Shown piece by piece: positions 1-16,071 of a DNA stretch of 58,705 bases; the first letter of the stretch is position 1, and each line of letters opens with the position of its first letter. The translations under genes and the position numbers were made by a program. The stretch is taken from contig NZ_AKJF01000070.1 in NCBI RefSeq assembly GCF_000282475.1, forward strand, positions 1 through 58,705. Direction: 5' to 3'. The notes beneath the pieces were generated by a model, which worked only from the letters and a program-made list of their open reading frames with translations, had not been told where the DNA came from and searched no databases. This stretch comes from Pseudomonas sp. GM78. GTDB lineage: Bacteria; Pseudomonadota; Gammaproteobacteria; Pseudomonadales; Pseudomonadaceae.

Positions 1-2
1 TG

Positions 3-122
3 GGGTTTATGGAGCGCTTACGTTCTGACGGGCGCGCCGGGCTGTTGGATCCGGCGTTCAAGCAGAAGGTTGTGATCACACCTAAGCTTTTGGATCAGGA
101 AGGCGTGTTGATTGGGTGGTGA
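3..122 (+). CDS. 3' end of an unrecognised gene (partial)
   Basis: An open frame enters from the left edge and stops at TGA 120-122, giving 39 residues that end in LDQEGVLIGW. It is the only one of the three plus frames open across this stretch. The peptide looks like a real soluble C-terminus, with mixed charged and hydrophobic residues, but I do not recognise the family. It converges on the minus-strand glycan operon, and an imperfect hairpin lies between them. A surface-polysaccharide role would fit the neighbourhood but is only a guess. Confidence 0.55.
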   Translation, partial: GFMERLRSDGRAGLLDPAFKQKVVITPKLLDQEGVLIGW

Positions 123-140
123 GTTGGATCGGGAGCAACA

Positions 141-184
141 GGATAAAAAATGCTGGCACCCACCTATGGTGGGGCCGGCACGAG
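141..184 (-). terminator. Probable terminator of the glycan operon
   Basis: Read on the minus strand, an imperfect GC-rich hairpin (TGCCGGC near 182 pairing with GCCAGCA near 155, with mismatches) is followed directly by TTTTTTA. It lies about 40 bases past the stop of the gtrA-like gene, the last gene of the operon. Confidence 0.5.
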
Positions 185-224
185 TGACTACTGGTCCGAT
201 ATCCGATATTTGCGATCGACTTTT

Positions 225-632
225 TTATTTCTCCCGGAAGGAGAGGTGCCTGTGACCGAGGTAGCTGGTAAAGACCGGGACAACCACGCCTACCGCATGC
301 GAAATCTCTTTGGCGAGGAGCGTGATGTTCAGTGCCGGCAGTAAGTAATAGGCCATGCCTAAACTGATGAAGTAGGTCTGCAATACCGCGACCACATTAA
401 CCAGCACAAAAAACAGAATCGAATGTTTCAGCGGCTGAGTGCTCTCTTTGAAGACGAACGCCTTGGCCAACAAAAACGCTGTTACCATGCCTGTTATATA
501 GGCAAGTATCACCGCCGTGGAAAAATTCGTCCACTGGTTGTAAAGGATGCGCGAAAAGAAGTTGACAGCAGCCGCGGTCCCCCCGGTAACAAGAAATATT
601 ATAAATTGCTTGTTCATGAACATTTTGGTCAA
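225..632 (-). CDS. GtrA-family membrane protein, possible polyprenyl-P-sugar translocase
   Basis: A 135-residue protein with four predicted membrane helices and the GtrA fold pattern, beginning near FLVTGGTAAAVNFFSR. GtrA-family proteins help move or present polyprenyl-phosphate-linked sugars across the inner membrane. Mycobacterial Rv3789 belongs to this family and is tied to decaprenyl-phosphoryl-arabinose. The start is probably TTG at 632: AAGGA lies nine bases upstream, and the codon overlaps the TGA of the preceding flavoprotein gene (TTGA). ATG at 623 or 617 is the alternative. Last gene of the operon; inferred to act after polyprenyl-P-pentose synthesis. Confidence 0.8.
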   Translation of the reverse strand: MTKMFMNKQFIIFLVTGGTAAAVNFFSRILYNQWTNFSTAVILAYITGMVTAFLLAKAFVFKESTQPLKHSILFFVLVNVVAVLQTYFISLGMAYYLLPALNITLLAKEISHAVGVVVPVFTSYLGHRHLSFREK

Positions 633-1915
633 GAAACTGCATCCTTCGCCAATTTTCGTCCAAAATCGATACTTTCAGAAATTCCGCGGTCTTCGGGGTA
701 GTAATAAGATGTATCGGCTACCCATAGGCCTTTCACGGGTAGCTTGGCGTCCGGAATGGTGTCCAAGTATTCCGGGCCACAGATCGGCTGGGCATGGCGA
801 TAACGGCTCGCTCGAACATCCAGGAAGTCATCATCGCTAAGCGAAGGGTTGATTTTCTTGAGGTACTGCTTGACCTTGTTGATGAAAATCTCATCAGATT
901 CCTGAAATTTGGGGTGTTCACCCGGCATGTAGAAGGGCACATAAACGATATGCTCGTTCAGCGGGCGAAGATTTGAATACTCCACTAGGCCCGGGATATC
1001 CATTTCAGGGTCATTGGTGTTGAGCCAGAAATTTTCAGTGACGGCTTTTTTCAATTTCGCGATCACACAAACCACGGCGATGTTTTTGGTGTTCTCGAAT
1101 TTCCTGAGGATGTCCGCAGGCAGATCCGGCATGATACTTGGGATGTAGGGCAGTGGAATGGTGCTGATAACCTTGTCAAAGCTCTCCAGTTCGCCATTGC
1201 TCACGACGCCCTTGACATGACCCGATTCAATGACGACCTTTGAGATTCTGCTTGAGAGTCTAATTTCGCCACCGGCTTGTTTGATGGCTTCTGACATCGC
1301 ATCGAGCAAAGTCGTGGAGCCACCATGCAGATACCCCAGTTTCTCTTTGAAGAGGCTGTAACGGGAGCGTCCGATACGGCGAATCCGGCTCCAGATCCAC
1401 GCGGCGGACAGGTTGTCTTTGAAGTCGTAGAATTTGAAGTCGAACAGTCGGCGCCATAGCACCTCATAGGCCTCTGCACCCACCCAGCGCTTGATCCACC
1501 CAATTGCTTCCAGGTTGTCCAGAGGCTTCCAATCATTGCGCTTGGTGCACAGAAAGGCGTGTAGCCCGTACCGAAACTTGGCAAGTAGGCTAAGCCCGCG
1601 GAATTTCAACAATGCAGTGGGATTGCCCCAGGATTGCAATTCATTCTGATACCAATAGCCCATCTTGGTTTCGACCCAACGCATCTTGTTTTCGATGCCA
1701 AGCTCTTGCAGCATTTGCAGGAACGCGTGGTCCGAGATGCAATGGAAATGATAGTAGCGCTCAATGGTCAAACCAGAGAAATCGAAACCCGCGGTCATGC
1801 CGCCGACACGATCATCCGCTTCAAAAATGACCGGGTGCTTACCTTCTTTGGTCAACTGATAGGCAACCGCCAAACCCATTGGGCCCGCCCCCAGTACTGC
1901 AACGCGCTCTCCCAT
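629..1915 (-). CDS. FAD-dependent oxidoreductase, UDP-galactopyranose mutase/amine oxidase-like
   Basis: A 428-residue flavoprotein. The N-terminus has the dinucleotide-binding loop GAGPMG at residues 9-14, an acidic residue ending strand 2 (FEADDRVGGM), and the Rossmann layout of protoporphyrinogen oxidase/UGM-like enzymes. No signal peptide is seen. It starts at ATG 1915, two bases after the epimerase stop, and overlaps gtrA, so it is translationally coupled on both sides. It is not a recognised component of the mycobacterial DPA route, so its substrate is unknown. A sugar-ring or polyprenyl-sugar modification is possible. Confidence 0.75.
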   Translation of the reverse strand: MGERVAVLGAGPMGLAVAYQLTKEGKHPVIFEADDRVGGMTAGFDFSGLTIERYYHFHCISDHAFLQMLQELGIENKMRWVETKMGYWYQNELQSWGNPTALLKFRGLSLLAKFRYGLHAFLCTKRNDWKPLDNLEAIGWIKRWVGAEAYEVLWRRLFDFKFYDFKDNLSAAWIWSRIRRIGRSRYSLFKEKLGYLHGGSTTLLDAMSEAIKQAGGEIRLSSRISKVVIESGHVKGVVSNGELESFDKVISTIPLPYIPSIMPDLPADILRKFENTKNIAVVCVIAKLKKAVTENFWLNTNDPEMDIPGLVEYSNLRPLNEHIVYVPFYMPGEHPKFQESDEIFINKVKQYLKKINPSLSDDDFLDVRASRYRHAQPICGPEYLDTIPDAKLPVKGLWVADTSYYYPEDRGISESIDFGRKLAKDAVS

Positions 1916-1917
1916 GA

Positions 1918-2865
1918 TTAAAACTCCAGAATATATTTGCTGTACGTAGGGTCGTTGAATGTTTCGTTCAGCGCGTTTGAAAACGAAGTGCAGGGCACGT
2001 TGAAGATGGACGGCCAGTCAATCACTTCGAACTCATCCTTGGCGCTCAGCGCTTGAAGTTGCTGAGTGGTGAACGGAGGATTTTTGTCAAACAGCGACCA
2101 GGTCCAGATCAGGGAGTAGAAAAGGCCGTAAGGGATTCTCAGAATGATCGTGTTCGCGTGGATGGTTCTTTTGATTTCGCGAATGATATCGATGTAATCC
2201 ACCTTCTCGTGCCCGGAGATGTTGTAGATCTTGTTCTCAATGTCATTTTCTATACAGCTGATAATGACGTTGCAAAAATCGCCGACATAGAGCGGTTGAC
2301 GCATGTACTTGCCATTCCCTGGGATCGGGAATACAGGTACTTTTTTCATAAAGCGTGACAGCCATCCTAAGTGCTTTCTGTCGAACCAGCCGAACATCAG
2401 TGTCGGGCGCAGGATCGGGCATTTTACATCGCTTGCCAGAACCATCTGCTCTTGTGCGATTTTTGAGCGTGTATAAAAGTCATCTGCGACAGATTCGACA
2501 ACTGACGAGCTGATATGAACGGTTTTGGTAATGTTGTATTGCTTGATCAGACTTAAGATGTTGTGCGTCGAATCAACATTGTTTTCAATGAATTCCTGGT
2601 AGTCCAAGCCGCCAATTTGTGCCTGCAGCATGACAACGACATCAGCATTCTCGAAATGACGGGCCCATTCACCCGGCTTCGCCAGATTGGCGAAGTGTGC
2701 CTCTATGCCGGGGTATGCCTGGCGCAGCACTTCAAGGTTTTTTTGGTGTTTGTCGATGACGACAATATTAGTGTAACCCCTGTCTTTCAGGCGAGCGACC
2801 AAGTTTTGACCCACCAGGCCGGCGCCGCCCGGTAGTACAATTTTCGATGACTTGTTCATTTTCAT
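1918..2865 (-). CDS. NAD-dependent epimerase/dehydratase (extended SDR)
   Basis: A 315-residue extended short-chain dehydrogenase. The N-terminal NAD loop GGAGLVGQNL is at about residues 13-22, followed by the acidic end of strand 2 (VVIDKHQ) and SSSVVES before the active-site helix. The usual YxxxK appears shifted or degenerate: FYTRSKIAQE contains Tyr-Thr-Arg-Ser-Lys, which fits YxxxK. Sugar-nucleotide epimerases and dehydratases are the nearest functional class. ATG 2865 overlaps the preceding stop as ATGA. The substrate cannot be read from sequence; context suggests a sugar used in the same glycan. Confidence 0.75.
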   Translation of the reverse strand: MKMNKSSKIVLPGGAGLVGQNLVARLKDRGYTNIVVIDKHQKNLEVLRQAYPGIEAHFANLAKPGEWARHFENADVVVMLQAQIGGLDYQEFIENNVDSTHNILSLIKQYNITKTVHISSSVVESVADDFYTRSKIAQEQMVLASDVKCPILRPTLMFGWFDRKHLGWLSRFMKKVPVFPIPGNGKYMRQPLYVGDFCNVIISCIENDIENKIYNISGHEKVDYIDIIREIKRTIHANTIILRIPYGLFYSLIWTWSLFDKNPPFTTQQLQALSAKDEFEVIDWPSIFNVPCTSFSNALNETFNDPTYSKYILEF

Positions 2866-4832
2866 TCAGCTCCTACTTGCACACCGTACAGCGCCACACC
2901 CAGTTTTCTTGGGTCATCTGATAACCCTACCTCCCGGGGTGATACCGGTTTTTCTACATTGATGCTCAATTGAATCGTCTTGTACGCCCCATCTTTCACG
3001 TTAAAAGATATCTTTTGACGGGCGGTACTATTGTTGAATGTTTGAGTAGCCACAACTTGGTTGTCGTGATGGATCTCAACGTGTTGGCTGATTTTGGAAT
3101 TGGGAACAAAGGCCCCTAAGTCTAGTGTGATTAGGCCTTTAAACCCTTCTGGCACCGGTATGCTGAGGGTGGCGATCTTGCTCATGGACCAGACGAAGTC
3201 TTGCTCAACTGCTGACCAGCCAGTGTCAAGAATATAGCGATTGAAAAGTTCCTGGTTTCCGTTAACGGTTATGAGGCCCTTGCCTGCAAAGTTAGGTGGC
3301 GTCATTTCGATAAAGAGCAAGCCTGGCGTACGGATGGCGACCTTTTCTACGCGCTGTGTCTCTGGGGAATTGCTCGTTACAAAGAGTCGCATGTTGTCTC
3401 TGACTTCGGCAGGTGTGCACATGGCTTCGTGAGTGAATAAAATATGCCAGTTCTTACTGATGCAGAAAAGTGATTTATTATTCCGGCGAGCATAGTTTTC
3501 TATGCCAACAACAGTCGACCATAGATAGTCCCAGTCATTTCCACTGTCGAGATCGAATACCATGCGCTTTGGATAGTTGAATTCTACGAGTGCATTATAG
3601 GACTCTATAATGTAGTCGTTTGTAGAGCTTGGCGGTTTGCTGATGTTATGGAGGGTCAGGGCGATACAAATGACAATCGCGACGATTGACGCGCTCTGCT
3701 TCTTGCTTTCTGGCACCAGTCCGCGGCAGACAAAGCACAGAATGGCCAGCGTCATGGCGGGTACTGAGTAGTAAAAGAAGCCGATGTAGGCGTGATCGAG
3801 CATGTCCACACCGTATTTTGCATAAAACAAAACGGCGCATGTTGCGGCTATGAAGGCTAGGCTGAGGGCTCTGATCCAATGGCTCTTGGCGTTGGATAGT
3901 TTTGTGTTGGCGAAGATCAGCGCTGATGCGCCTATCACGGCGGGCAGGATGCCGCCCCAGTAGACCGAGGTGAAACTGATGGCTTCACGAAGTGTATTCG
4001 GAGCACGCCCACCGCTGAAGGCGGCGTACGCCGCGATAGGACCAGGGAAGTGGATGAAGGTTTCTATCGCAAGAGGGACGAAAAAGAGTGCCAGGGTCAC
4101 GATGCTGAGCAGAATGGGTCTGATGTTGTTCTGCACGAAGTCCTTGCTAGTGATGACCTTGGCGCGATCGCTTCTATAAAAGGCGATTCGGTTGAAGGCC
4201 AGTAGCAGAATGAGTGTGATGCCCAGGATGGCTACGAAGGAAACGTGACCGTTGACGAGAAAGCCGGAAGATAATGCCAGAGACTGTAGGGCATCTGTTC
4301 GTCCGTTAAACAGCGTCGAAATCGATATGACCATGACCGCGAAAGGCAGCATGTACAGGTGTGGGAACCACATGCCGGTCAGAAAGTTGGAGTCGCAAAA
4401 CGTGATTACAGCGAGGAACAGGGCGGTAATCACTGCTGCATCACTCAGTTTTCCGGTGAGCTTTGTCAACAGTTTCAGGAGGAGGGTGATCCAGAAGGCG
4501 GAATACAGTGCGACTGCCAGCAATTGTCCGGAAATTGGCGAAGGCACGACTTTCAGGGTGTCGAAAAATACAAACTCACCAAATGCCAATACATACAGGA
4601 TGGCGGGGCCGGGATGGTTAAAGCCTACCCGTGAGTAGTTGCCAACAAACAGCGCGAACTCTTTGGCTTTTAGGATTAATAGGCTATTGGCCGCCAAGTC
4701 GCTGGTTTCAATGGTATGCGTGCTGATAATCGGCCAATTCGAAACGGCTAGTACGACGGCAAGAACTGAAAAAAACAGAACGAACCAACCATTACTGACT
4801 TTCTTTTCAGTAGAGGAGAGTGTGGTGCTCAA
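2862..4832 (-). CDS. Large polytopic membrane protein, candidate GT-C glycosyltransferase
   Basis: A 656-residue protein with about eleven hydrophobic segments in residues 15-400 and a hydrophilic C-terminal region of about 240 residues ending in a beta-rich stretch. The first external loop has an acidic residue (Asp45 in IETSDLAANS) and an NHPGP motif at 72-76. This layout resembles polyprenyl-P-sugar-dependent GT-C enzymes, which carry an acidic residue in loop 1 and a C-terminal carbohydrate-binding domain. The start is TTG 4832 (no ATG is available), with GAGG about eight bases upstream. Its place between DprE2 and the epimerase suggests it uses the polyprenyl-P-pentose made by the operon. 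Function is inferred, not recognised. Confidence 0.6.
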   Translation of the reverse strand: MSTTLSSTEKKVSNGWFVLFFSVLAVVLAVSNWPIISTHTIETSDLAANSLLILKAKEFALFVGNYSRVGFNHPGPAILYVLAFGEFVFFDTLKVVPSPISGQLLAVALYSAFWITLLLKLLTKLTGKLSDAAVITALFLAVITFCDSNFLTGMWFPHLYMLPFAVMVISISTLFNGRTDALQSLALSSGFLVNGHVSFVAILGITLILLLAFNRIAFYRSDRAKVITSKDFVQNNIRPILLSIVTLALFFVPLAIETFIHFPGPIAAYAAFSGGRAPNTLREAISFTSVYWGGILPAVIGASALIFANTKLSNAKSHWIRALSLAFIAATCAVLFYAKYGVDMLDHAYIGFFYYSVPAMTLAILCFVCRGLVPESKKQSASIVAIVICIALTLHNISKPPSSTNDYIIESYNALVEFNYPKRMVFDLDSGNDWDYLWSTVVGIENYARRNNKSLFCISKNWHILFTHEAMCTPAEVRDNMRLFVTSNSPETQRVEKVAIRTPGLLFIEMTPPNFAGKGLITVNGNQELFNRYILDTGWSAVEQDFVWSMSKIATLSIPVPEGFKGLITLDLGAFVPNSKISQHVEIHHDNQVVATQTFNNSTARQKISFNVKDGAYKTIQLSINVEKPVSPREVGLSDDPRKLGVALYGVQVGAE

Positions 4833-4872
4833 GGTCAGGGCCTCAAATTCAAAGGTGAAAGTATAATTTTTA

Positions 4873-5613
4873 TTAAAGGCTCAAACGCTTGAATACAAAA
4901 TCAGGCACGCATTTAATAATCATCATGATTAATCGCCAGAAAGAAGGGGCGTAAACCACGGCTTTGCGATGATCAATACCGCGAAGGATGATTTCTGCGA
5001 CGGTTTCCGGTTTGGCGACCAGTGCACCTGGCAATGGCAGACCTTGGGTCATTGGGGTGTCAACAAAGCCCGGCTTCACATCCATGACGTGTACACCCAC
5101 TTTGAACATGCGAACCCGCAGGCCTTGGCAGAAGGTGGAAACAGCTGACTTTGCTGTTCCATATAGATAGTTGGATTGGCGCCCGCGATCGCCGGCCACG
5201 GAGGAGATAACGGCGATTATGCCGCATCGCTGCTTTTCGAAGTGGTTGCTGAAGTGAGTCAGCAGCGAAATCACAGACGTTCCATTTGCGGAGAACTCTG
5301 CAAGTGCTTTTTCCACTTGGCTTTCACAAGCTTTCTGATCTGGCAACGTGCCATGAGCGATCAAGAGCACGTCGATTTGATTCAGCGTATTGACAGCTTC
5401 TTGAAGCAAAGCGGCATGAAGGCTGTAATCGGTTACATCCTGGGTGCGATAGTGAACCGTTTTCGCACCACGCCCCAACAGGTCAGATCCTGTTTGATGC
5501 AACTTTTCCTCATTGCGCCCGACCAGAAAAAACTCCGCCCCCTGTTTTGCCCAGAGGCGTGCACACGCAGCGGCAATGGCGGACGTGGCGCCAACGATTA
5601 CAATACGTTTCAT
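4873..5613 (-). CDS. DprE2-like SDR: polyprenylphospho-2-ketopentose reductase
   Basis: A 246-residue classical short-chain dehydrogenase. The cofactor loop GATSAIAAACA is at 8-18, Asn-Ala-Gly is replaced by AHG at 86-88, and the catalytic set is Ser138, Tyr151 and Lys155 (YGTAK). DprE2 reduces the 2-keto intermediate made by DprE1, completing conversion of polyprenyl-phosphoryl-ribose to -arabinose. The pairing with a DprE1-like gene is direct: ATG 5613 overlaps its stop as ATGA. Length matches mycobacterial DprE2 (about 254 residues). General SDR chemistry is certain; the specific substrate is inferred from the neighbour. Confidence 0.8.
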   Translation of the reverse strand: MKRIVIVGATSAIAAACARLWAKQGAEFFLVGRNEEKLHQTGSDLLGRGAKTVHYRTQDVTDYSLHAALLQEAVNTLNQIDVLLIAHGTLPDQKACESQVEKALAEFSANGTSVISLLTHFSNHFEKQRCGIIAVISSVAGDRGRQSNYLYGTAKSAVSTFCQGLRVRMFKVGVHVMDVKPGFVDTPMTQGLPLPGALVAKPETVAEIILRGIDHRKAVVYAPSFWRLIMMIIKCVPDFVFKRLSL

Positions 5614-6923
5614 TGAGTTACTCGTTTCCAGAAGAGGGAATTTAAATGCGGCGCGCGTAGGGCTTCCAGTTGTTCCCAGTTCGGGAAGAACGCCTGGAAG
5701 TCTGAGGCCGTCATATGAGCGTCTTTGGCGGGATAGAGCCGTCCCCCAGCTTCTCGAACGATGTGATCGAGTTTTGGGAACACGTGGTCGACGACTGACT
5801 TTTTCTGCGCGAAGTCCAGCGCCAAGGAAATACCAGGCATCGGGAAGGACAGTAGCCCAGGTGAGATGATGTCGCCGCAGCGCTTCAATACAGCCAAAAA
5901 CGAACCTTCACCTGATTGTGAAATGCACTTGAGTATTTCATGCATCGCCGAGGAGGCGACCACCTCGGGGATAACGCACTGGTATTGCTGAAAGCCATTG
6001 CGCCCATAGATCCGGTTCCAGTTGGTCAGGGTGTCCAACGGGTAGAAAAAGGGTTCGTAATTGGAGCGGCCGAGGGCCAATGTCTTGGGGTGTTTATGCC
6101 AGTACAGGGTGTTGAATGCATGCAGTGAAAGATTGTTGATCAGCGAGAACGGTGCAGTGAGGGGGACATTGGTCTTTTTGGCCGTGCCCAGGGTTTTATC
6201 GCCGTATTCGGCGTGGTCGCCGACAAAAAAAACACCCCTTCCAATCTGATCGCCTTTGGCCACGCAGTCTATCCAGGCAACGCTGTACTCATGTTGCCTG
6301 TCGAGTTCGTTTGACAGGAGGAAAAAATCATTTAAGCAGTTGAATCGAATCGTTTTGGTGTTGATTTGTGCAGACTGGATCGGTGTGAGCTGGAATTCAA
6401 CCCAAGTGATAATGCCGGTAAGGCCTAGGCCTCCGATGGTCGCGTTGTACAGTATTTCGTTTTCGGTAGGTGAGCAGGTGATTTGTTCTTCAGCGCTGCG
6501 CAGCAATCCAAACCTAAGCGTATGGCACCCAAAGGTACCTTTAACATGATGGTTCTTGCCATGGACGTCATTGGCAATTGCACCTCCAACTGTCACGAAC
6601 TGAGTGCCTGGCGTGACCGATAGGAACCAGCCTTGAGGGACGATAATCTGCAGAATTTCGTTCAAGGTAATGCCAGATTCAACCGTCAGCCTCCCTGTCT
6701 CGGGGTCAAAGTGGATGACCCGATCCATACCGCGCATGCAAATGACATGTCCGCTAGCAGCCAGGCAGCTGTCGCCATAACTACGCCCACTGCCATAGGC
6801 TAATGTCGTTTCGTGTTGGGCAATGACGTCGTTGCTGACACGGCCAATGTCGGCTCGCCAGTGAGGCGAATGTCCGGACTGGGGAGCATTTGGGACGCGC
6901 CCCCACGATTTGATATTGTTCAT
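5610..6923 (-). CDS. DprE1-like FAD oxidase (polyprenylphospho-ribose 2'-oxidase)
   Basis: A 437-residue VAO/FAD-binding-4 flavoprotein. FAD-domain motifs GSGRSYGD (44-51), GGAIANDVHGKNHH (113-126) and a C-terminal AKD with Lys400 match Mycobacterium DprE1 as I recall it (GLGRSYGD, GGAIACDIHGKNHH, Lys418). It would oxidise the 2'-hydroxyl of polyprenyl-phosphoryl-ribose for DprE2 to reduce. The benzothiazinone-reactive cysteine of mycobacterial DprE1 (Cys387 in GWNICVDF) aligns with Ala368 here (GISLALDF). The start ATG 6923 overlaps the upstream stop by one base (TGATG). Confidence 0.85.
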   Translation of the reverse strand: MNNIKSWGRVPNAPQSGHSPHWRADIGRVSNDVIAQHETTLAYGSGRSYGDSCLAASGHVICMRGMDRVIHFDPETGRLTVESGITLNEILQIIVPQGWFLSVTPGTQFVTVGGAIANDVHGKNHHVKGTFGCHTLRFGLLRSAEEQITCSPTENEILYNATIGGLGLTGIITWVEFQLTPIQSAQINTKTIRFNCLNDFFLLSNELDRQHEYSVAWIDCVAKGDQIGRGVFFVGDHAEYGDKTLGTAKKTNVPLTAPFSLINNLSLHAFNTLYWHKHPKTLALGRSNYEPFFYPLDTLTNWNRIYGRNGFQQYQCVIPEVVASSAMHEILKCISQSGEGSFLAVLKRCGDIISPGLLSFPMPGISLALDFAQKKSVVDHVFPKLDHIVREAGGRLYPAKDAHMTASDFQAFFPNWEQLEALRAPHLNSLFWKRVTQ

Positions 6924-8347
6924 CAGGCGGCAATCCAGAACACAAGGCAGAACAATGCTCCAACAACAAGACTGGTTCTATCTTTTATCGCAAAGACGAC
7001 TGGGTCATCGTGCATTTGTCCGCGGTGCGTCAATACCCAGACTCTCGTTATCCAGAACAGCAGCAGAGGGCACGCCATCCAAATGATTTGGGGGTGTTTA
7101 TAGAGTTCGACTGTGACGTTGTCGTGAATGTACAGCGCGAGCACCATAATGGACAGGTAGCCCGCCGCAGCCCCGAGCGATGAGATCATTTCAAGGTCGT
7201 CAGGGTAATAACCACGCCCTCGGGTTTTTTCTTTGTGACCTTTTTTATGTGCCTCGCGAAGTTCAGCGTAGCGCTTGACCATTGCAAGGCTGAGAAACAT
7301 GAACATGGAGAATGCGAGCATCCAGAACGTAAGGGTAAGTGCTAGGGCTGTGGCGCCGGCAATTATTCGAATAGTGTAGAGAAGTGCTAGTGCAATGACG
7401 TCTACTGCCATTATCCGTTTGAGGGAAAGTGAGTAGGCGAGTGTCAAGATATAGTAGGCGAACAGGGCGCCAACGAATTCCAGTGGCATCAGGAATAGGG
7501 CGCCACCGAACGCCAGGATCAGTAGGGTCGGAAACACCATGATCCCGGATTTCAAGCTTAAGCGACCCGCGGCAAAGGGGCGATTTTTCTTGGTCTTGTG
7601 ATGCCTGTCGTCGGCAAGGTCAAGTAGATCGTTGAGCAGGTAGACGCTGGATGCGCAGATGCCAAATAATACGAATGCGATGACTGCCTTAAAAAGTAGC
7701 GAAAAATCACCTATTTTATGGGCGGCCAGCAAAGGAACGAAAATAAGCAGATTTTTCATCCACTGGTGCAGTCGCAAGGCTTTGAGCCAGTCTTTCAGCG
7801 GGGCGCGCGGAGTGCTGATCGTGAGGGCTGTTTTTTGCAGTTTGTTCGCGCGTTTTTCAACGCCATATTCAGGTTCGACGATATAGGCGTGACGTGCCGA
7901 TTCCCAGACGATCAGGTCATCGCTGGAGTTCCCCAGGTAGTCATAGCCTTCTTCCCCGTAAAGTTGTACGAGCAGGTCACGCTTTTTATGGGCGCTCAGG
8001 TTGGTCTTGTCGTCGCTCGCCAATACCCCATGAAAGAGGTCGAGATGATCGGCTATTTTTTGCGCGAGACTGTGATGGGTTGCGGTAGCAAGTATGATTT
8101 GGCGCCCGGCCAGCTTTTCGGCTTTCAACAAATCCAGCACAGCGGCGTTATAGGGAAGCAGTGCCATGTCGATTTGGGTTGCCTGCGCCAGCTTTTCCTT
8201 AAGGACGCATTTGCCTTGCATCATCCACAAAAACGGGTTAAGGCAGCTCAGGGGCCGGGCTCGGACAAACGCCATGCCGGTTTCAAGCAACATGTCCGAT
8301 GAGAGTAAAGTTCCGTCAAGATCTACGACGAGCGGAGGGGTATTCAA
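6923..8347 (-). CDS. HAD phosphatase-UbiA prenyltransferase fusion (polyprenyl-P phosphoribosyltransferase)
   Basis: A 474-residue two-domain protein. Residues 1-180 are a HAD hydrolase: DLDGT with Asp9/Asp11, ATAT at 87-90, and GNSSDD at 139-144. Residues 190-474 are a UbiA-family membrane prenyltransferase with about eight helices, NDLLDLADD at 239-247 and a second aspartate motif KRIMAVD (Asp316). UbiA-type Rv3806c transfers phosphoribose from PRPP to decaprenyl phosphate; the attached HAD domain could remove the 5-phosphate, the next step. The start is TTG 8347 with AGGGA upstream; no ATG is available before the DLDGT motif. First gene of the operon. Confidence 0.8.
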   Translation of the reverse strand: MNTPPLVVDLDGTLLSSDMLLETGMAFVRARPLSCLNPFLWMMQGKCVLKEKLAQATQIDMALLPYNAAVLDLLKAEKLAGRQIILATATHHSLAQKIADHLDLFHGVLASDDKTNLSAHKKRDLLVQLYGEEGYDYLGNSSDDLIVWESARHAYIVEPEYGVEKRANKLQKTALTISTPRAPLKDWLKALRLHQWMKNLLIFVPLLAAHKIGDFSLLFKAVIAFVLFGICASSVYLLNDLLDLADDRHHKTKKNRPFAAGRLSLKSGIMVFPTLLILAFGGALFLMPLEFVGALFAYYILTLAYSLSLKRIMAVDVIALALLYTIRIIAGATALALTLTFWMLAFSMFMFLSLAMVKRYAELREAHKKGHKEKTRGRGYYPDDLEMISSLGAAAGYLSIMVLALYIHDNVTVELYKHPQIIWMACPLLLFWITRVWVLTHRGQMHDDPVVFAIKDRTSLVVGALFCLVFWIAA

Positions 8348-8629
8348 AACAAATGCTTCCCTGAAGTATGGATACCGTCGATATCAAGTGCGTGGATACA
8401 GAAAAGCCTACTAGCGTGGCTGAACTAGGAACTTGTCCAAATCGACACAAGGCTTTCATTTGGCCGCAAAACTAACATAAATGGTTATCAAAGCCCATAC
8501 TGAGGGGGGGCTGGCATTTTGCTTCATCGAATAGTGCGCGCCGCCGATGCCCGCCGCCAACGTCCCGGGCTGGGTCGCGGGATTTGTCGCGCCTGCGCGA
8601 TGGCGGGTGGCAGATTCAGCCGCCCGCGG
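8348..8629. other. Intergenic region holding the glycan operon promoter
   Basis: These 282 bases separate the start of the HAD-UbiA gene from the stop of the binding-protein gene. AT-rich sequence near 8348-8510 presumably holds the minus-strand promoter, but I see no convincing -35/-10 pair. I also find no JUMPstart/ops element (GGCGGTAG) on either strand. Sequence from about 8530 rightward returns to high GC. Confidence 0.4.
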
Positions 8630-9382
8630 TCATGGCCTGGCTTCAGCCTTGCCGCCCACGTAAAGGCGAATGATGTCATCGATTTCCCCTGACATCTTCA
8701 TGCGCAGCAGGGTGCGCAGAATGCGCTGCACCGGCACCTTGGGATCGTTGCGTACGTAACAGCCGACGCGTTGCTCCTGCAGGAACGCCACGCCTTGCAG
8801 TTGCTGCTGCGGCAACAATCGCTGGTTGAACCAGTCCAGGGTCCATTGGTTGCTGACCGCATAGCGGTTGCGTCCGGCATGCAGCTTCTCCAGCACCTGT
8901 TCCTGGTTACGGGCGTCGTCCCGATACAGCCGGTTGGCGTCGAACAGCGGCTGCAGGGTCGGGTAGCTGTAGCCCAGGACCGTGCCGATCGATTGATGGG
9001 GCAAGTGTGCCGGGTTGACGGAGTCCTTCGCGTCAGGCCGGCTGACCAGCAGGTCGGGTTGAGTCCAGAGCGGAATGCTCCAGATATAGTCGCCGGACTG
9101 GTTCGGCGTCCAGGACTGTGCGGCGTAGCAGCGAATGTCGACCTCGCCCTGTTCCATGGCGTTCTGCACCCGGCCGCGGGGCAATACGTGGAACTGCGCC
9201 GGTACACCGACCTGGGTCGCGAGGCTGAGCATCACGTCATACAGGATGCCCTGGGTCGGTCGGCCACGCTCCAGTTGCACCATCGGCATGGCCCAACTGT
9301 CAGGCACTACGAAGCGCAACGGCGTGTCAGCGGCCACCCCGTCCAGGCTGATCAACAGCAGTGCCCCCCAGGCCAACCGCAT
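8630..9382 (-). CDS. Periplasmic substrate-binding-like protein (SBP family 3)
   Basis: With ATG at 9382 the protein has 250 residues and opens with a clear signal peptide (MRLAWGALLLISLDGVA, cleavage likely before ADT). A longer frame to 9634 would overlap dnaX and lacks a leader, so I reject it. The mature part follows the transporter substrate-binding domain 3 pattern, with GILYDVMLSLATQVG, a DIRCYAA segment and GYSYPTL. No permease or ATPase genes adjoin it. Its ligand is unknown; many such orphan proteins in Pseudomonas have no known transporter. It is divergent from dnaX. Confidence 0.75.
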   Translation of the reverse strand: MRLAWGALLLISLDGVAADTPLRFVVPDSWAMPMVQLERGRPTQGILYDVMLSLATQVGVPAQFHVLPRGRVQNAMEQGEVDIRCYAAQSWTPNQSGDYIWSIPLWTQPDLLVSRPDAKDSVNPAHLPHQSIGTVLGYSYPTLQPLFDANRLYRDDARNQEQVLEKLHAGRNRYAVSNQWTLDWFNQRLLPQQQLQGVAFLQEQRVGCYVRNDPKVPVQRILRTLLRMKMSGEIDDIIRLYVGGKAEARP

Positions 9383-9517
9383 AAACGCTCCACTATCCTT
9401 GAAGCAAAAGGCCCGCAAAATGCAGCTTAGCCAGATTAGACGAGCGCACCGGATGCAATTTGTGCCTTGCTCCGCTAGCATTAGCCGCTTCTGTTTCCTT
9501 CGCTGCGACGGTTTTCG

Positions 9518-11590
9518 ATGAGTTATCAGGTTCTTGCACGTAAATGGCGTCCGCGCTCGTTCCGCGAAATGGTCGGCCAGACCCATGTGCTCAAGGCTCT
9601 GATCAATGCCTTGGACAGCCAGCGGCTGCACCACGCGTACCTGTTTACCGGGACGCGCGGGGTCGGCAAGACCACCATCGCGCGGATCATCGCCAAATGC
9701 CTGAACTGTGAAACAGGTATCACTTCAACGCCCTGCGGCGAGTGTTCGGTGTGCCGCGAAATCGATGAAGGCCGCTTCGTCGACCTGATCGAGATCGACG
9801 CTGCCAGCCGCACCAAGGTCGAAGACACCCGCGAGCTGCTCGACAACGTGCAGTACGCCCCCAGCCGCGGGCGTTTCAAGGTCTACCTGATCGACGAAGT
9901 GCACATGCTCTCCAGCCATTCTTTCAATGCGCTGCTGAAAACCCTCGAAGAGCCGCCACCCTACGTCAAGTTCATCCTGGCCACCACTGATCCGCAGAAA
10001 CTTCCCGCAACGATTCTCTCGCGTTGCCTGCAGTTCTCCCTGAAGAACATGACCCCGGAACGGGTCGTCGAGCATTTGACCCATGTGCTCGGCGTCGAGA
10101 ACGTGCCGTTCGAAGACGATGCGCTGTGGTTGCTCGGTCGCGCCGCCGACGGTTCGATGCGCGATGCCATGAGCCTCACCGACCAGGCGATCGCCTTCGG
10201 TGAAGGCAAGGTCATGGCCGCTGACGTGCGGGCGATGCTCGGCACCCTCGATCACGGCCAGGTCTATGACGTCCTGCATGCGCTGATCGAAGGCGACGCC
10301 AAGGCCCTGCTCGAAGCGGTCCGCCATCTGGCCGAACAGGGGCCGGACTGGAACGGCGTGCTCTCGGAAATCCTCAATGTGCTGCACCGGGTCGCCATTG
10401 CCCAGGCTTTGCCGGAAGGCGTCGACAACGGCCATGGCGACCGTGACCGGGTGCTGGCCCTGGCCCAGGCCTTGCCGGCCGAAGACGTTCAGTTCTATTA
10501 CCAGATGGGGCTGATCGGCCGCCGCGACTTGCCGCTGGCTCCCGATCCCCGCGGCGGTTTTGAAATGGTGCTGTTGCGCATGCTGGCGTTCCGGCCCGCC
10601 GACACCACGGACGCGCCAAGTCAACCGCTAAAGCCAGTGGGGATCAGCCAGGCCACTGTTGATTCCGCCAAATCAGTGGCTGCCACGCCGGTCGTAGCAA
10701 AGGTCGTCGCTGCGCCCGTTGCACCTGTGGCGGCAGTGGCTCCGGCACCTGCGCCGGTTGCGCCTGTCGCAGCACTTCAGCCTGTACCTGAGCCTGAGCC
10801 GGTGGCCCCGGCAGTCGTGGTCGAAGAAGTGGTCGACCTGCCGTGGAATGATCCGGTCGAGCCAGCAGCCGTTCAGCAGCCAGCCGTCGAGCCGGTGCTG
10901 GAAACTGCCAGCGAGCAGCCCGAACTGCCGCCGATGCCGTTGCCGACCCCGGAAAGCGTGGTGCCGGACGCACCGGAGTGGGCCGCCGCGCCGATTCCGG
11001 AGCCGACGGTGGCCCAAGTCGATGCCGCCACCCCTGGCATGGACCTCGATGACGAGCCGCCGCTGGACGAGGATTACATCGAACCAGACATGGACTCGGC
11101 CTACAGCTACCTCGACGAATTGGCCAGTGAGCACGCCGCCGAGCCAGCCGCAGAACCCGAGCCTGAGCCCGCTGCAGCACCCGCCACGGGCCTGGCGCTG
11201 CAATGGCTGGAGCTGTTCCCGAAGCTGCCGATTTCCGGCATGACCGGCAGCATCGCCGCCAACTGCACGCTGATCGCGGTCGATGGCGACAATTGGTTGT
11301 TACACCTGGACCCGGCCCACAGCGCCTTGTTCAACGCCACTCAACAACGTCGTCTCAACGAAGCGTTGAACCAGTATCACGGGCGGACCCTGACCCTGAC
11401 CATGGAGCTGATCAAGCCTCAGCAGGAAACACCGGCCCAGGCCGCGTCCCGTCGGCGTGCCGACCGTCAGCGCGAGGCCGAGGAATCGATCCACGGTGAT
11501 CCGTTCATCCAGCAAATGATGCAGCAGTTCGGTGCGGTGGTCCGTAACGATACTATTGAACCTGTCGAGGCCCTGGCCAGTCAGGGCTAA
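9518..11590 (+). CDS. dnaX: DNA polymerase III subunit tau (gamma/tau)
   Basis: A 690-residue clamp-loader ATPase. Walker [10 protein letters not shown] includes Lys51, the zinc ligands are Cys64, Cys73, Cys76 and Cys79 (with Cys61 nearby), Walker B is LIDEVHM, and the AAA+ core runs to about residue 370. A long Ala/Pro/Glu-rich linker (about 375-560) leads to the C-terminal domains that bind DnaB and the alpha subunit. In E. coli a slippery A-AAA-AAG makes the short gamma form; I see no such heptamer here, so full-length tau may be the only programmed product. It heads the dnaX-ybaB-(MDR)-recR cluster. Confidence 0.97.
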
Positions 11591-11655
11591 TAACTGAAGG
11601 CGCTTGCCCGCATGGGCGGGCGCCGTTTAATCCAAGTACTTTTGAGGTGATTCCC

Positions 11656-11994
11656 ATGATGAAAGGTGGCATGGCCGGCCTGATGAAGCAGGCACAGCAG
11701 ATGCAGGAAAAAATGGCCAAGATGCAGGAAGAGCTGGCCAACGCCGAAGTCACCGGTAAAGCCGGTGGCGACATGGTCACCGTGGTGATGACCGGTCGTC
11801 ACGACGTCAAACGCGTGACCATCGACCCAAGCCTGGTCGAAGGCCTGAGCGAAGATGACAAGGAAATGCTCGAAGCGGTGTTCGCCGCGGCCGTCAACGA
11901 CGCCGTGCGCAAGATCGAAGCCAACAGCCAGGACAAAATGGGCAGCATGACCGCCGGCATGCAACTGCCACCGGGCATGAAACTGCCATTCTGA
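11656..11994 (+). CDS. YbaB/EbfC nucleoid-associated DNA-binding protein
   Basis: A 112-residue protein beginning [17 protein letters not shown], with a coiled-coil N-terminal half, [10 protein letters not shown]-type core strands and a Met/Pro-rich tail ([12 protein letters not shown]). YbaB proteins are dimeric, bind DNA and are almost always encoded between dnaX and recR, as here. The frame is open from GTG 11647, but that GTG lies within the Shine-Dalgarno sequence GAGGTG (11644-11649). ATG 11656, six bases downstream, is therefore the likely start. It is followed by a strong terminator. Confidence 0.92.
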
Positions 11995-12021
11995 TTCGCC
12001 TTCAGGCGTCGGATGAGCTAC

Positions 12022-12057
12022 AAAAAATGCCAGGCATCTTGCCTGGCATTTTTGTTT
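12022..12057 (+). terminator. Intrinsic terminator after ybaB
   Basis: The stem AAATGCCAGGC / GCCTGGCATTT has a five-base loop and is followed by TTTTG. It starts about 30 bases past the ybaB stop. An A-run on the left side could let it work on the other strand too. Confidence 0.85.
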
Positions 12058-12094
12058 CTGCCTCACAGGGATGCGGCGCCTGTGAAGTCGCCTT

Positions 12095-12161
12095 CGCGGG
12101 CAAGCCCGCTCCCACAGGATTCGCGGCGTTCGCAAAACCTGTGGGAGCGGGCTTGCCCGCG
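12095..12161. repeat. REPIN-like inverted pair, group A
   Basis: Two inverted copies of CGCGGGCAAGCCCGCTCCCA (12095-12118 and 12138-12161) are separated by 19 bases. The same unit recurs at 18397, 21918 and 32746. These are mobile REP elements of fluorescent pseudomonads. Confidence 0.9.
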
Positions 12162-12261
12162 ATGAAGTCGCCTCGGTTCAACCGAATAGACATCGAACGC
12201 CAAACCAGTAAAAAGGTCTGCTCCCTATACCCCGTACCCATCGATCAAAGGAGACGCTGAC

Positions 12262-13299
12262 ATGTCCGACCCCATGACCCTCAACCAACGTATCGTCCTG
12301 GCCTCGCGCCCGGTCGGCGCACCGACGCCGGAGAATTTTCGCCTGGAGCGGGTCGCGCTACCCGATCTGGCCGAGGGTCAGGTGCTGCTCAAGACCCTTT
12401 ATCTGTCGCTGGACCCCTACATGCGCGGGCGCATGAGTGATGCGCCGTCCTATGCCGCGCCGGTGGAGATCGGCGATGTGATGACCGGTGGTGCAGTCAG
12501 CCGGGTCGAGCGTTCGCGCCATCCCAAGTTTCATGAAGGTGACCTGGTGGTCGGCGCCACGGGATGGCAGAGCCACAGCATCAACGACGGTACCAGCATC
12601 ATGGCGCTACCTTCGGGGCTGCCCAACCCCTCCATGGCCCTGGGTGTGCTGGGCATGCCGGGCATGACCGCCTACATGGGCTTGATGGACATCGGCCAGC
12701 CGAAAGAGGGCGAGACCCTGGTGGTGGCGGCAGCCTCGGGCGCCGTGGGGTCGGTGGTGGGCCAGGTGGCGAAGATCAAGGGCCTGCGCGTGGTCGGCGT
12801 GGCCGGCGGGGCGGAAAAATGTCGTTATGTCACTGAAGAGCTGGGTTTCGATGCCTGCATCGACCACAAGAGCCCGGACTTCGTCGACGAGCTGGCGAAG
12901 GCATGCCCCAAGGGTATCGATATCTATTATGAGAACGTCGGCGGCAAGGTGTTCGACGCCGTGGTGCCGTTGCTAAACCCCAAGGCGCGGATTCCGCTCT
13001 GTGGCCTGATTGCTTCCTACAACGCCAGCGAGGCACCGAGCGGCCCGGATCGCTTGCCGCAATTGCAGCGCACGTTGTTGACCAAGCGCGTGCGAATCCA
13101 GGGCTTTATCGTGTTCGACGACTACGGTGACCGTCAGCCGGAGTTCATCAGTGCGATGGCACCGTGGGTGCGTGATGGCAAGGTGAAGTTTCGCGAAGAC
13201 GTGGTCGATGGCCTGGAGCAGGCGCCCGAGGCGTTCATCGGGCTGCTGGAAGGTCGCAACTTTGGCAAACTGGTGGTGCGGGTCGCGCCCAACGACTAA
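12262..13299 (+). CDS. NADP-dependent medium-chain oxidoreductase (CurA/LTB4DH-like)
   Basis: A 345-residue zinc-independent MDR enzyme. The N-terminal substrate domain carries LSLDPYMRGRM, typical of the leukotriene B4 dehydrogenase/curcumin reductase subfamily. The NADP-binding Rossmann domain has AASGAVGSVVGQVAKIKG, followed by VGVAGGAEKC and YENVGGKVFD. Members reduce alpha,beta-unsaturated ketones and aldehydes with NADPH. AAAGGAGA lies just upstream of ATG 12262. It sits between ybaB and recR and is not part of the DNA-repair unit by function. The physiological substrate is unknown. Confidence 0.88.
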   Translation: MSDPMTLNQRIVLASRPVGAPTPENFRLERVALPDLAEGQVLLKTLYLSLDPYMRGRMSDAPSYAAPVEIGDVMTGGAVSRVERSRHPKFHEGDLVVGATGWQSHSINDGTSIMALPSGLPNPSMALGVLGMPGMTAYMGLMDIGQPKEGETLVVAAASGAVGSVVGQVAKIKGLRVVGVAGGAEKCRYVTEELGFDACIDHKSPDFVDELAKACPKGIDIYYENVGGKVFDAVVPLLNPKARIPLCGLIASYNASEAPSGPDRLPQLQRTLLTKRVRIQGFIVFDDYGDRQPEFISAMAPWVRDGKVKFREDVVDGLEQAPEAFIGLLEGRNFGKLVVRVAPND

Positions 13300-13374
13300 T
13301 TGACGCTGTGAATTGACGCTCAACAGAGGCGCGGGTATAAACCGCGTCTCGTTGTTTTCGTCGGACTTTTCCCC

Positions 13375-13977
13375 ATGAGCTTCAGCCCTTTGATTCGCCA
13401 ACTGATCGACGCCCTGCGAGTTTTGCCAGGTGTGGGTCAGAAAACCGCCCAGCGCATGGCGTTGCAGTTGCTCGAGCGTGATCGCAGTGGCGGCTCGCGC
13501 CTGGCACTGGCCCTGAACCAGGCCATGGATGGGGTCGGTCACTGCCGTCAGTGCCGCACGCTGACCGAAGACGATCTCTGCCCGCAGTGCGCCGATACCC
13601 GCCGCGACGACACCTTGCTGTGCGTGGTGGAAGGGCCGATGGATGTCTACGCCGTGGAGCAGACCGGTTTCCGTGGCCGCTACTTCGTGCTCAAGGGGCA
13701 TCTGTCGCCGCTCGACGGGCTGGGGCCGGAGGCGATCGGCATTCCGCAATTGATGGCGCGGATCGAGGAGGCGGGCACGTTCACCGAAGTCATCCTCGCC
13801 ACCAACCCGACCGTGGAAGGCGAAGCCACTGCGCACTACATCGCCCAGCTGCTCAGCAGCAAAGGCCTGATCGCTTCGCGGATCGCCCATGGCGTGCCGC
13901 TGGGTGGCGAGCTGGAGTTGGTGGATGGCGGGACGCTGGCGCATTCGTTTGCGGGGCGTAAGCCGATCTCCCTCTAG
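13375..13977 (+). CDS. recR: Recombination mediator RecR
   Basis: A 200-residue protein of normal RecR length. The helix-hairpin-helix ([16 protein letters not shown]) is at about 15-30, followed by a four-cysteine zinc site (CRQC and CPQC) and a Toprim domain ([26 protein letters not shown]). RecR acts with RecF and RecO to load RecA on SSB-coated gaps. Conserved synteny with dnaX and ybaB supports the call. The C-terminal [12 protein letters not shown] motif is intact. Confidence 0.96.
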
Positions 13978-14000
13978 TCCTGTAGCGCCTTCAGGGACGC

Positions 14001-15311: not shown

Positions 15312-15332
15312 TGGGCGGTGTGGCGGATTACG

Positions 15333-15429
15333 CCATCGCTGGCGAGCCAGCTCCCACAGGGATCTGATGTGTACATAAATTCTGTGCACAACAAAGAACA
15401 CTGTGGGAGTTGGCTTGCCAGCGATGGCG
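15333..15429. repeat. REPIN-like inverted pair, group B variant
   Basis: CCATCGCTGGCGAGCCAGCT (15333) and its inverse CTGTGGGAGTTGGCTTGCCA (15401) are separated by about 40 bases. It lies between two convergent genes and may also act as a boundary hairpin. Confidence 0.85.
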
Positions 15430-15445
15430 TCAGCACAAGCGCCGC

Positions 15446-15994
15446 TTACTTGTCGGAAAGGGCAAACTGCGTCAGGCAAAAAGTCGGAATCCCCATGTCT
15501 TCCAGGCGCTGCGAACCTCCCAGCTCCGGCAAATCGATGATCGCCGCCGCTTCATGCACCCGCGCGCCCATGCGTCGAATCAGGTTCGCCGCCGCAATCA
15601 GGGTACCGCCGGTGGCGATCAGGTCATCGAACATCACCACCGAATCGCCTTCGCACAGGCTGTCGGCGTGCACTTCAAGAAACGCTTCGCCGTACTCGGT
15701 CGCATAACCTTCAGCCAGAACGTCGGCCGGCAATTTGCCTTGCTTGCGAAACAGCACCAGCGGCTTGTTCAACTGATACGCCAGCACCGAGCCGATCAGG
15801 AAACCCCGGGCATCCATGGCGCCAATGTGGGTGAAATCCGCCTCGACATAGCGGTGGGCGAAGCTGTCCATCACCAGGCGCAGGGCCGTGGGCGACTGGA
15901 AGAGCGGGGTGATGTCGCGAAAGATCACGCCGGGCTTCGGAAAGTCGATCACGGGGCGGATGAGGGATTTGATGTCGAAGGAGTCGAAGACCAT
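15446..15994 (-). CDS. apt: Adenine phosphoribosyltransferase
   Basis: A 182-residue type I phosphoribosyltransferase. The PRPP-binding loop [13 protein letters not shown], the N-terminal [14 protein letters not shown] segment and the flexible-loop region [13 protein letters not shown] are all typical of Apt. It salvages adenine to AMP using PRPP. I take ATG 15994 because family members begin a few residues before FDS(F)DIK; a longer frame to 16105 would overlap anr. It is downstream of anr in the same orientation, with 77 bases between them. Confidence 0.94.
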
Positions 15995-16071
15995 CGAAGG
16001 TGTCCTGGCAGGCTGCAAACGACACAGTATAACGGCGGCTGAACCGTTTCGCTCAGCCGCGATCGGCCTAA

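What the first reader, a model, noticed from the sequence alone, without database searches (positions are those of the whole stretch)
225..8347. A polyprenyl-phosphoryl-D-arabinose (DprE1/DprE2-type) glycan operon in a Pseudomonas
Seven coupled minus-strand genes combine a UbiA-type phosphoribosyltransferase, a DprE1-like oxidase, a DprE2-like reductase, a GtrA-like membrane protein and a candidate GT-C enzyme. In mycobacteria this chemistry makes the arabinose donor for arabinan. P. aeruginosa group IV pilin strains (Pa5196/PA7) use a related set with the arabinosyltransferase TfpW to modify pilin. Here no pilin gene adjoins and the large membrane protein is not recognisably TfpW, so the acceptor (LPS, pilus, flagellin or other) is open.
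Basis: partly seen in the sequence, partly recalled or inferred. Interest (0 to 1): 0.85.

Follow-up and report, generated by a model that had tools for sequence, protein, structure and literature searches.

The report
Lipid-linked pentose cassette decorating O-antigen
Seven co-directional genes most likely build a pentose sugar on a membrane lipid and hang it on the bacterium's outer sugar coat; they resemble the enzymes that make arabinose in mycobacteria but include two further, unstudied enzymes that may turn it into a different rare sugar.

Summary
The operon is real at 225-8347 and the core reading is right: UbiA phosphoribosyltransferase fused to a HAD phosphatase, DprE1- and DprE2-type enzymes, GtrA. 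The large protein folds like arabinosyltransferase AftA and ArnT (GT-C) with a carbohydrate-binding domain. It works like the published three-component pentofuranose systems. (1) A single-contig genome of the same species carries such a cassette inside its O-antigen cluster; the window's copy, 51% GC against 61%, lies near the same region by synteny. LPS O-polysaccharide, not pilin, is the likely acceptor. (2) An extended SDR and a FAD enzyme are co-conserved: 56 of 60 well-flanked relatives and 7 of 7 plasmid relatives at 45-63% identity keep UbiA, DprE1, DprE2, SDR, FAD enzyme and GtrA together, while DprE1 loci without the pair are common. So the pathway probably does not stop at D-arabinofuranose. 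Boldest unexcluded reading: the pair makes L-xylose, the C4 epimer, an O-antigen branch sugar for whose donor route two searches showed me no paper. The sugar itself is untested.

The parts
6923..8347 (-). HAD phosphatase (N-terminal) fused to UbiA-type polyprenyl-phosphate phosphoribosyltransferase, 474 aa; first committed step from PRPP
   Evidence: NF006088 667 bits; PDB 8j8j 2e-27 with the NDxxD...KxxRP region aligned; 9 TM by crude hydropathy
5610..6923 (-). DprE1-type FAD oxidase (C2 oxidation of lipid-linked ribofuranose), 437 aa
   Evidence: PDB DprE1 2.8e-62; HGKNHH and YxAKD regions aligned, the 4aut cysteine in GWNVCVDF is alanine here; NF053785 350 bits, below its 500 cut-off
4873..5613 (-). 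DprE2-type SDR reductase, 246 aa
   Evidence: NF005489 335 bits; NF053786 (DprE2) 171 bits, below 250; PDB 21gq_C DprE2 2.1e-24, top hit
2862..4832 (-). Slot glycosyltransferase, 656 aa: GT-C membrane domain (about 1-513) plus C-terminal beta-sandwich like carbohydrate-binding modules (about 516-656)
1918..2865 (-). Extended SDR, NAD-dependent epimerase/dehydratase family, 315 aa (called SDRepi)
   Evidence: PF01370; GxxGxxG-type motif, S119-S121 and Y131xxxK135 invariant in 27 aligned sequences; nearest PDB: dTDP-Glc 4,6-dehydratase and other epimerase-family proteins
629..1915 (-). FAD oxidoreductase of the amine-oxidase/phytoene-desaturase/UGM fold, 428 aa (called FADox)
225..632 (-). GtrA-type small membrane protein, candidate flippase; real start probably an ATG a few codons inside
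   Evidence: PF04138 45 bits, cut-off 26
8538..8538 (.). Edge of DNA shared with a same-species genome at this place (95.6% identical from here to 13968); the cassette side has no match there
   Evidence: blastn of window 1-14000 to L060; GC 0.506 for 225-8347 against 0.613 for 8538-58705
1..224 (+). Contig end; C-terminal 39 codons of a convergent ORF (3-122), family unknown
   Evidence: no Pfam match

Best explanation
A horizontally acquired cassette for side-chain modification of the LPS O-polysaccharide. UbiA transfers phosphoribose from PRPP to polyprenyl phosphate and its HAD domain removes the 5-phosphate (inferred from characterised relatives). DprE1 and DprE2 invert C2, giving polyprenyl-P-D-arabinofuranose (inferred). 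The SDR and the FAD enzyme, found together and nearly always with DprE1/E2, then act on that lipid-linked sugar as a further oxidoreductase/isomerase pair (inferred from co-conservation). GtrA moves the lipid to the periplasmic face, and the GT-C slot protein, helped by its carbohydrate-binding domain, adds the sugar to the O-polysaccharide (inferred from fold and context). The GT slot is exchangeable while donor synthesis stays constant, as expected for serotype variation.
For: Core families. GT-C fold with CBM. Cassette inside the O-antigen cluster of single-contig same-species genome G264. O-antigen markers in 36 of 66 type-A loci of 17 kb or more (at least four of the 66 are duplicates of one contig) against 0 of 12 type-B loci without the pair. 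Co-conservation: 56 of 60 loci with 9 kb or more upstream hold all five partners, 79 of 80 have the SDR directly upstream of FADox; 7 of 7 plasmid hits at 45-63% FADox identity have the same six genes in order; in an even phylum sample 5 of the 6 other genomes with FADox at 47% identity or more hold the whole set, the sixth being cut by its contig end. FADox is in 0 of 13 UbiA loci that lack DprE1/E2. A protein of 380 aa or more with at least 7 TM by crude hydropathy lies in the slot or within 4.5 kb in 62 of 66 loci with UbiA (no background rate was measured). HGT: GC, Pseudomonas rows not one group in the FADox tree. Precedent: Citrobacter three-component systems (PMC11127046).
Against: No biochemistry. 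In the window's own assembly the cassette is not seen inside an O-antigen cluster: the linkage to contig C201 rests on synteny with G264, and a gap remains. 30 of 66 type-A loci show none of my O-antigen markers. Exceptions to co-conservation: L117 (no UbiA, DprE1 or DprE2 within 10 kb), L108, L137, L145 (no UbiA found, DprE1/E2 on the other strand); L209 has DprE1/E2 with only an SDR fragment and no FADox. NCBIfam DprE1/DprE2 cut-offs not reached. In the FADox tree Pseudomonas rows are still more clustered than in 500 label shuffles. What the SDR/FAD pair does is not shown.
Confidence: 0.68

Rival explanations
1. Plain D-arabinofuranose system: the donor is polyprenyl-P-D-Araf, and the SDR and FAD enzymes serve something else (lipid carrier maturation or acceptor tailoring) rather than changing the sugar.
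Against: FADox is tied to DprE1/E2 and was not found with UbiA alone (0 of 13), which fits a substrate made by DprE1/E2 better than the bare carrier. The SDR's nearest solved relatives are mostly sugar epimerases/dehydratases, though complex I NDUFA9-type proteins are among them.
Confidence: 0.25
2. Second epimerisation at C3: the SDR/FAD pair works like DprE1/E2 on another carbon and gives polyprenyl-P-D-lyxofuranose.
For: ORF13 of Citrobacter, an SDR with the same kinds of motif, inverts C3 of lipid-linked ribofuranose (PMC11127046 section 11); a FAD oxidase plus SDR reductase pair would repeat the DprE1/E2 logic.
Against: Lyxofuranose is stated to be in no solved carbohydrate structure (PMC11127046 discussion). 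ORF13 works without a FAD partner. ORF13's sequence was not at hand to compare; an extended SDR beside a UbiA without DprE1/E2 (L213), perhaps of that kind, is only 23% identical to SDRepi.
Confidence: 0.12
3. Pilin arabinosylation as in P. aeruginosa Pa5196/PA7.
For: Same donor chemistry is reported there (PMC12369383, PMC11841053, passages).
Against: The one Pfam pilin gene of this genome (G000:C75) is flanked by T2SS-F, BON and DUF748 proteins; the slot GT model carries a carbohydrate-binding domain; the same-species copy is in the O-antigen cluster.
Confidence: 0.06

Closest known systems
Three-component pentofuranose systems of Citrobacter youngae O1/O2 (ORF12-ORF15, GT136; Kelly et al. 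2024, PMC11127046)
   Same: UbiA-type synthase with an N-terminal HAD phosphatase domain, a flippase, a GT-C with C-terminal carbohydrate-binding domain, an SDR epimerase option, location in an ABC-transporter O-antigen locus.
   Different: Flippase is GtrA, not MATE; DprE1/E2 present; SDR is paired with a FAD enzyme; GT136 membership not tested (ORF12 sequence not at hand). The paper mentions elaborate systems with several candidate epimerases or GT-Cs in Xanthomonas and Bacillus; its supplement could not be read, so overlap with this cassette is possible.
Mycobacterial DPA pathway (Rv3806c, Rv3807c, DprE1 Rv3790, DprE2 Rv3791, Rv3789; AftA)
   Same: UbiA, DprE1, DprE2 homologues and a GtrA-type protein (Rv3789 recalled as GtrA-like; the paper calls it SMR-like); slot GT folds most like AftA.
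   Different: HAD phosphatase fused instead of a separate one; two further oxidoreductases; Gram-negative O-antigen context.
P. aeruginosa/paraeruginosa PSPA7_6245-6251 with TfpW
   Same: Donor synthesis enzymes of the same families (passages).
   Different: Pilin acceptor, synthase without PRP (HAD) domain (PMC11127046 discussion, which also says a P. syringae B728a candidate has a PRP domain). Three Pseudomonas loci with a HAD-less UbiA (L049-L051) look like the PA7 type and lack the SDR/FAD pair.
Nod-factor arabinosylation noeCHOP of Azorhizobium
   Same: D-arabinosylation from a UbiA-like route (recalled; search listing only).
   Different: Acceptor and gene set; not compared by sequence.

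Membership tests
Three-component pentofuranose system (PMC11127046) | polyprenyl-P phosphoribosyltransferase of the UbiA family | tested here: met
   PDB 8j8j 2e-27, Asp-rich region aligned; activity not tested
Three-component pentofuranose system (PMC11127046) | HAD phosphoribose-phosphatase domain | tested here: met
   NF006088 over the full length, 667 bits; Pfam HAD itself weak, 24.6 bits, below its cut-off 27
Three-component pentofuranose system (PMC11127046) | dedicated flippase | tested here: inconclusive
   GtrA family found where the prototype has MATE; transport not testable
Three-component pentofuranose system (PMC11127046) | GT-C glycosyltransferase | tested here: met
Three-component pentofuranose system (PMC11127046) | GT136 membership of the GT-C | not tested
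   ORF12 sequence not available
DprE1 | homology over the enzyme with catalytic regions | tested here: met
   2.8e-62 to DprE1, HGKNHH and YxAKD aligned; that these are the catalytic regions is recalled
DprE1 | NCBIfam equivalog cut-off NF053785 | tested here: not met
   350 bits of 500: a homologue, not an equivalog by that rule
DprE2 | NCBIfam equivalog cut-off NF053786 | tested here: not met
   171 bits of 250; top PDB hit is DprE2 nevertheless
TfpW pilin arabinosylation | glycosyltransferase gene beside pilA | tested here: not met
   nearest ORFs to the only Pfam pilin gene are T2SSF, BON and DUF748
TfpW pilin arabinosylation | TfpW homology of the slot GT | not testable with these tools
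   no TfpW sequence at hand
UDP-galactopyranose mutase (for FADox) | UGM sequence family (Pfam GLF) | tested here: not met
   no GLF match at E 0.01
UDP-galactopyranose mutase (for FADox) | UGM fold | tested here: inconclusive

The most novel reading that the evidence does not exclude
The cassette is a route to lipid-linked L-xylose. L-xylose is the C4 epimer of D-arabinose (established stereochemistry). An extended SDR of the GalE kind inverts C4, which is possible only when the sugar is a pyranose; a flavin enzyme of UGM-like fold could open the furanose and close it as the pyranose, with polyprenyl phosphate as leaving group. PRPP to polyprenyl-P-D-Ribf (UbiA/HAD), to D-Araf (DprE1/E2), to D-Arap (FADox), to L-Xylp (SDR), flipped by GtrA and added by the GT-C. 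This would use every gene and would explain partial beta-L-xylopyranose branches on rhamnose-rich O-chains of other proteobacteria (Ralstonia solanacearum, PMC10450222, passages; Xanthomonas, by a reference title in PMC5786101). It predicts FADox relatives to be polyprenyl-phosphate-sugar mutases in general: the two most distant ones seen sit beside GtrB-type GT2 genes (L240, L245).
Probability: 0.25. Interest if true: 0.85.

Novelty: new variant of a known kind. Interest (0 to 1): 0.62.

Why it matters
It shows that DprE1/DprE2 chemistry, known as a tuberculosis drug target, recurs in Proteobacteria (and a few rows from other phyla) as a module with a fixed donor-making core and an exchangeable glycosyltransferase, often near O-antigen genes. 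If the SDR/FAD pair changes the sugar, it defines a new branch of polyprenyl-phosphate sugar chemistry and gives a genomic marker for which rare pentose a strain displays, possibly relevant to phage and bacteriocin sensitivity and plant recognition. The question is testable by one NMR structure of one O-antigen and a few in vitro steps.

Tried and rejected
Rejected: pilin as acceptor (see rivals). Rejected: that the cassette is absent from the species. GT-C and flank searches of same-species genome G264 suggested this; a DprE1 search showed a 64%-identical DprE1 and, around it, a full cassette in the O-antigen cluster. Led nowhere: first scan of genome contigs with the GT-C protein (39 stretches, none a relative); viral contigs with FADox (21 stretches, none a relative); phages with DprE1 (no match at 1e-20); PADLOC (only one desaturase-like model, to FADox); promoter and terminator scan, fewer sites than in shuffles; ORF at 3-122 (no family). 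TfpW, ORF12 and ORF13 sequences were not obtainable, so direct comparison was not made. Whether Ralstonia or Xanthomonas hold the cassette was not tested: neither is among the 80 loci kept of 119. A look for Xylf-type loci (UbiA plus SDR without DprE): a motif scan of the 13 UbiA-only loci flagged none, but the ORF picker was poor in GC-rich loci, and L213 does have an extended SDR beside UbiA, 23% identical to SDRepi.

In the papers library (CC-licensed PMC only) no paper describing the SDR/FAD pair was listed by searches, nor an L-xylose donor route by 103 and 123, as far as titles and abstract starts show; Harvey 2011 and Kus 2008 are not held, and supplements could not be read.

Full report
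The observation. The window is contig G000:C70 of a 7.29 Mb draft. Genomes that the tools call 'same genus' share contigs, by length, with named Pseudomonas records (for example G042/L088 P. marincola, G115/L125 P. viridiflava). Seven minus-strand genes fill 225-8347 in tight succession. Family scans and PDB searches identify them as UbiA+HAD, DprE1-like, DprE2-like, a polytopic protein, an extended SDR, an amine-oxidase-type flavoenzyme and GtrA. The segment is 50.6% GC against 61.3% for 8538-58705, where 85 overlapping windows of equal size range from 59.0 to 63.3%.

Donor core. The UbiA domain aligns with the mycobacterial phosphoribosyltransferase structure 8j8j through the Asp-rich loop, and the protein matches NF006088 over its length, HAD part included. 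DprE1 aligns over 381 residues with 4aut, keeping HGKNHH and YxAKD; the cysteine of the 4aut segment GWNVCVDF is alanine here. DprE2's best solved relative is DprE2. Both are below NCBIfam's equivalog cut-offs, so they are homologues rather than certified equivalogs. Biochemistry of the fused HAD-UbiA type is known from Citrobacter ORF15: PRPP plus farnesyl-P gives farnesyl-P-ribofuranose (PMC11127046 section 7, read in full).

Architecture across Pseudomonas. All 25 other DprE1 places were fetched and compared. With the window, 26 loci: 10 of type A (UbiA-DprE1-DprE2-[slot]-SDR-FADox, with GtrA seen in all but L032), 12 of type B (UbiA-DprE1-DprE2, then in 11 of 12 a protein of cluster c4, PF03706 in the one scanned, and a 470-500 aa candidate membrane GT of cluster c9 or c17), 3 of PA7-like type C (HAD-less UbiA), 1 other (L041). 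In type A the slot holds at least five protein clusters with little or no detectable similarity, or nothing, while SDR and FADox stay 67-78% identical to the window's. In L029 the slot keeps a 124-residue ORF resembling the N-terminus of the L037 slot protein (by eye), and a GT of another slot cluster lies convergent downstream, as if one GT had replaced another. Two genomes (G115, G085) carry two DprE1 places each, G115 one of type A and one of type B.

Co-conservation of the pair. A scan of named genomes with a FADox alignment gave 80 loci (of 119) from Betaproteobacteria, Gammaproteobacteria and single MAG rows of Nitrospirota, Chloroflexota and Desulfobulbaceae. Of 60 with 9 kb or more upstream, 59 have DprE1, 59 DprE2, 56 UbiA, 60 SDR, 60 GtrA, 56 all five; the SDR is directly upstream in 79 of 80 and GtrA directly downstream in 73 of 80. 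Less biased: in 299 genomes of the phylum 8 have FADox; of the seven besides the own, six are at 47% identity or more: five hold the full set, one is cut by its contig end, and the seventh (32%) is the GtrB case below. In plasmids 8 records match; the 7 at 45-63% identity, from Burkholderia, Rhizobium, Agrobacterium and a Rhodobacteraceae strain, all have the six genes in the same order, the eighth (29%) is the other GtrB case. Conversely, of 40 UbiA loci from Gammaproteobacteria, 27 have DprE1; FADox is in 6, all with DprE1 and DprE2, and in 0 of 13 without DprE1/E2. In L217 the gene order is rearranged but the set is kept. L209 is an exception (SDR fragment, no FADox). One of the 13, L213, has a different extended SDR beside UbiA (23% identical to SDRepi).

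Acceptor. In G264, a single-contig genome called same species, the stretch next to dnaX matches the window from 8538 on at 95.6% but holds no cassette. A DprE1 search found another DprE1 32 kb away. Reading 60 kb: a ribosomal-S1-domain protein, rmlB- and rmlA-like genes, wbpL, UbiA-DprE1-DprE2-712 aa protein without Pfam match-SDR-FADox-GtrA, a weakly GtrB-like and an aminotransferase-like gene, a 1450-aa protein like a GT of C201, wzt, an ABC-2 permease (wzm; PF01061), rmlC, a GT-like gene, wbpM (PF02719 404 bits), then a comEA-like gene (recalled) and on to dnaX. So a type-A cassette sits within the O-antigen cluster of the same species; gene by gene it is 64-77% identical to the window's, and its slot protein has no significant match to five slot queries. 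In the window genome the O-antigen-type genes (wbpM, wbpL, wzm/wzt, rml; names partly from recall) are on contig C201, whose base 1 equals L060:11905 while the window joins at L060:14315. If synteny holds, the cassette lies just beyond that flank. Among other loci, 36 of 66 type-A stretches of 17 kb or more carry an O-antigen marker, 0 of 12 type-B (Fisher p 0.0003, rows not independent, duplicates included). The single pilin gene is flanked by T2SSF, BON and DUF748 proteins.

Mobility. FADox from Pseudomonas is not one group in the tree: 9 changes drawn, at least 2 forced by well-supported branches; still fewer than in any of 500 label shuffles (mean 14), so some clustering by genus exists. 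The unassembled gap between C201 and C70 may hold contig C100: it has a Phage_integrase gene (PF00589) and an 81-bp stretch 98% identical to L060:11884-11964, which spans the point where C201 ends.

Interpretation. Steps shown here: gene content, homology, predicted fold of the GT and FADox, co-conservation, genomic context. Steps inferred: every reaction. The core reading (lipid-linked pentofuranose, flipped and added outside) follows characterised relatives (PMC11127046: abstract and sections 5, 7, 11, 12 read). The new point is that this subfamily carries an SDR/FAD pair that nearly always accompanies DprE1/E2. Kelly et al. show that one SDR can change the pentose on the lipid (ribo to xylo), note that lyxofuranose is unknown and mention systems with multiple candidate epimerases in Xanthomonas whose complexity warrants investigation. 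L-xylose is the C4 epimer of D-arabinose and occurs as a partial, pyranose side residue on a rhamnose and GlcNAc O-chain in R. solanacearum (PMC10450222, passages), the kind of partial branch that periplasmic modification can leave. Hence the novel case. It is a prediction, not a finding.

Other sources seen only in passages: PMC12369383, PMC11841053, PMC6804347, PMC12608077, PMC5786101.

Noticed in passing
window about 12072-12178: A repeated REP-like intergenic element: of 81 places of the 4.1-kb query matched in G264, 80 are to this stretch; a second repeat with many copies matches L060:11606-11714, one copy at window 41962-42038.
   Followed up: no
G000:C201:48503-51482 (L075): A second, hexose-type three-component set (GtrA, GtrB-like, 548-aa protein; GtrA by PF04138, the rest by recall) in the O-antigen region of the same genome.
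   Followed up: no
L076 (G000:C100), 6507-8060: A 9.2-kb contig with a phage-integrase-family gene whose flank is 98% identical over 81 bp to the point where contig C201 ends; a mobile element may lie between the O-antigen region and the cassette.
   Followed up: partly
L240:8240-12741; L245:5045-7290: Distant FADox relatives beside GtrB-type GT2 genes, in another class of the phylum and in an actinomycete (Embleya).
   Followed up: partly
L029:11833-12207 and 15017-16939: Apparent remnant of one slot glycosyltransferase cluster next to an intact protein of another cluster: perhaps a glycosyltransferase swap.
   Followed up: partly
window 5610-6923 (residues 364-371 of DprE1): The cysteine of mycobacterial DprE1 in this segment is alanine in the window protein.
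   Followed up: no
L202, L215, L225, L228, L229: UbiA-HAD loci without DprE1/E2 carry a 113-128-residue protein with 2-5 hydrophobic stretches directly beside UbiA (the one scanned, L202, matches EamA), and in L215 and L225 a PMT_2-type protein: perhaps plain ribofuranose systems with another flippase type.
   Followed up: partly
L213:10994-11692: An extended SDR (PF01370) beside a UbiA-HAD gene without DprE1/E2, only 23% identical to SDRepi: candidate for a xylofuranose-type epimerase.
   Followed up: partly
L041 (G085:C83): A fourth cassette type: UbiA-HAD, DprE1, DprE2, a 132-aa protein and a 648-aa protein, in a genome that also holds a type-B locus.
   Followed up: no
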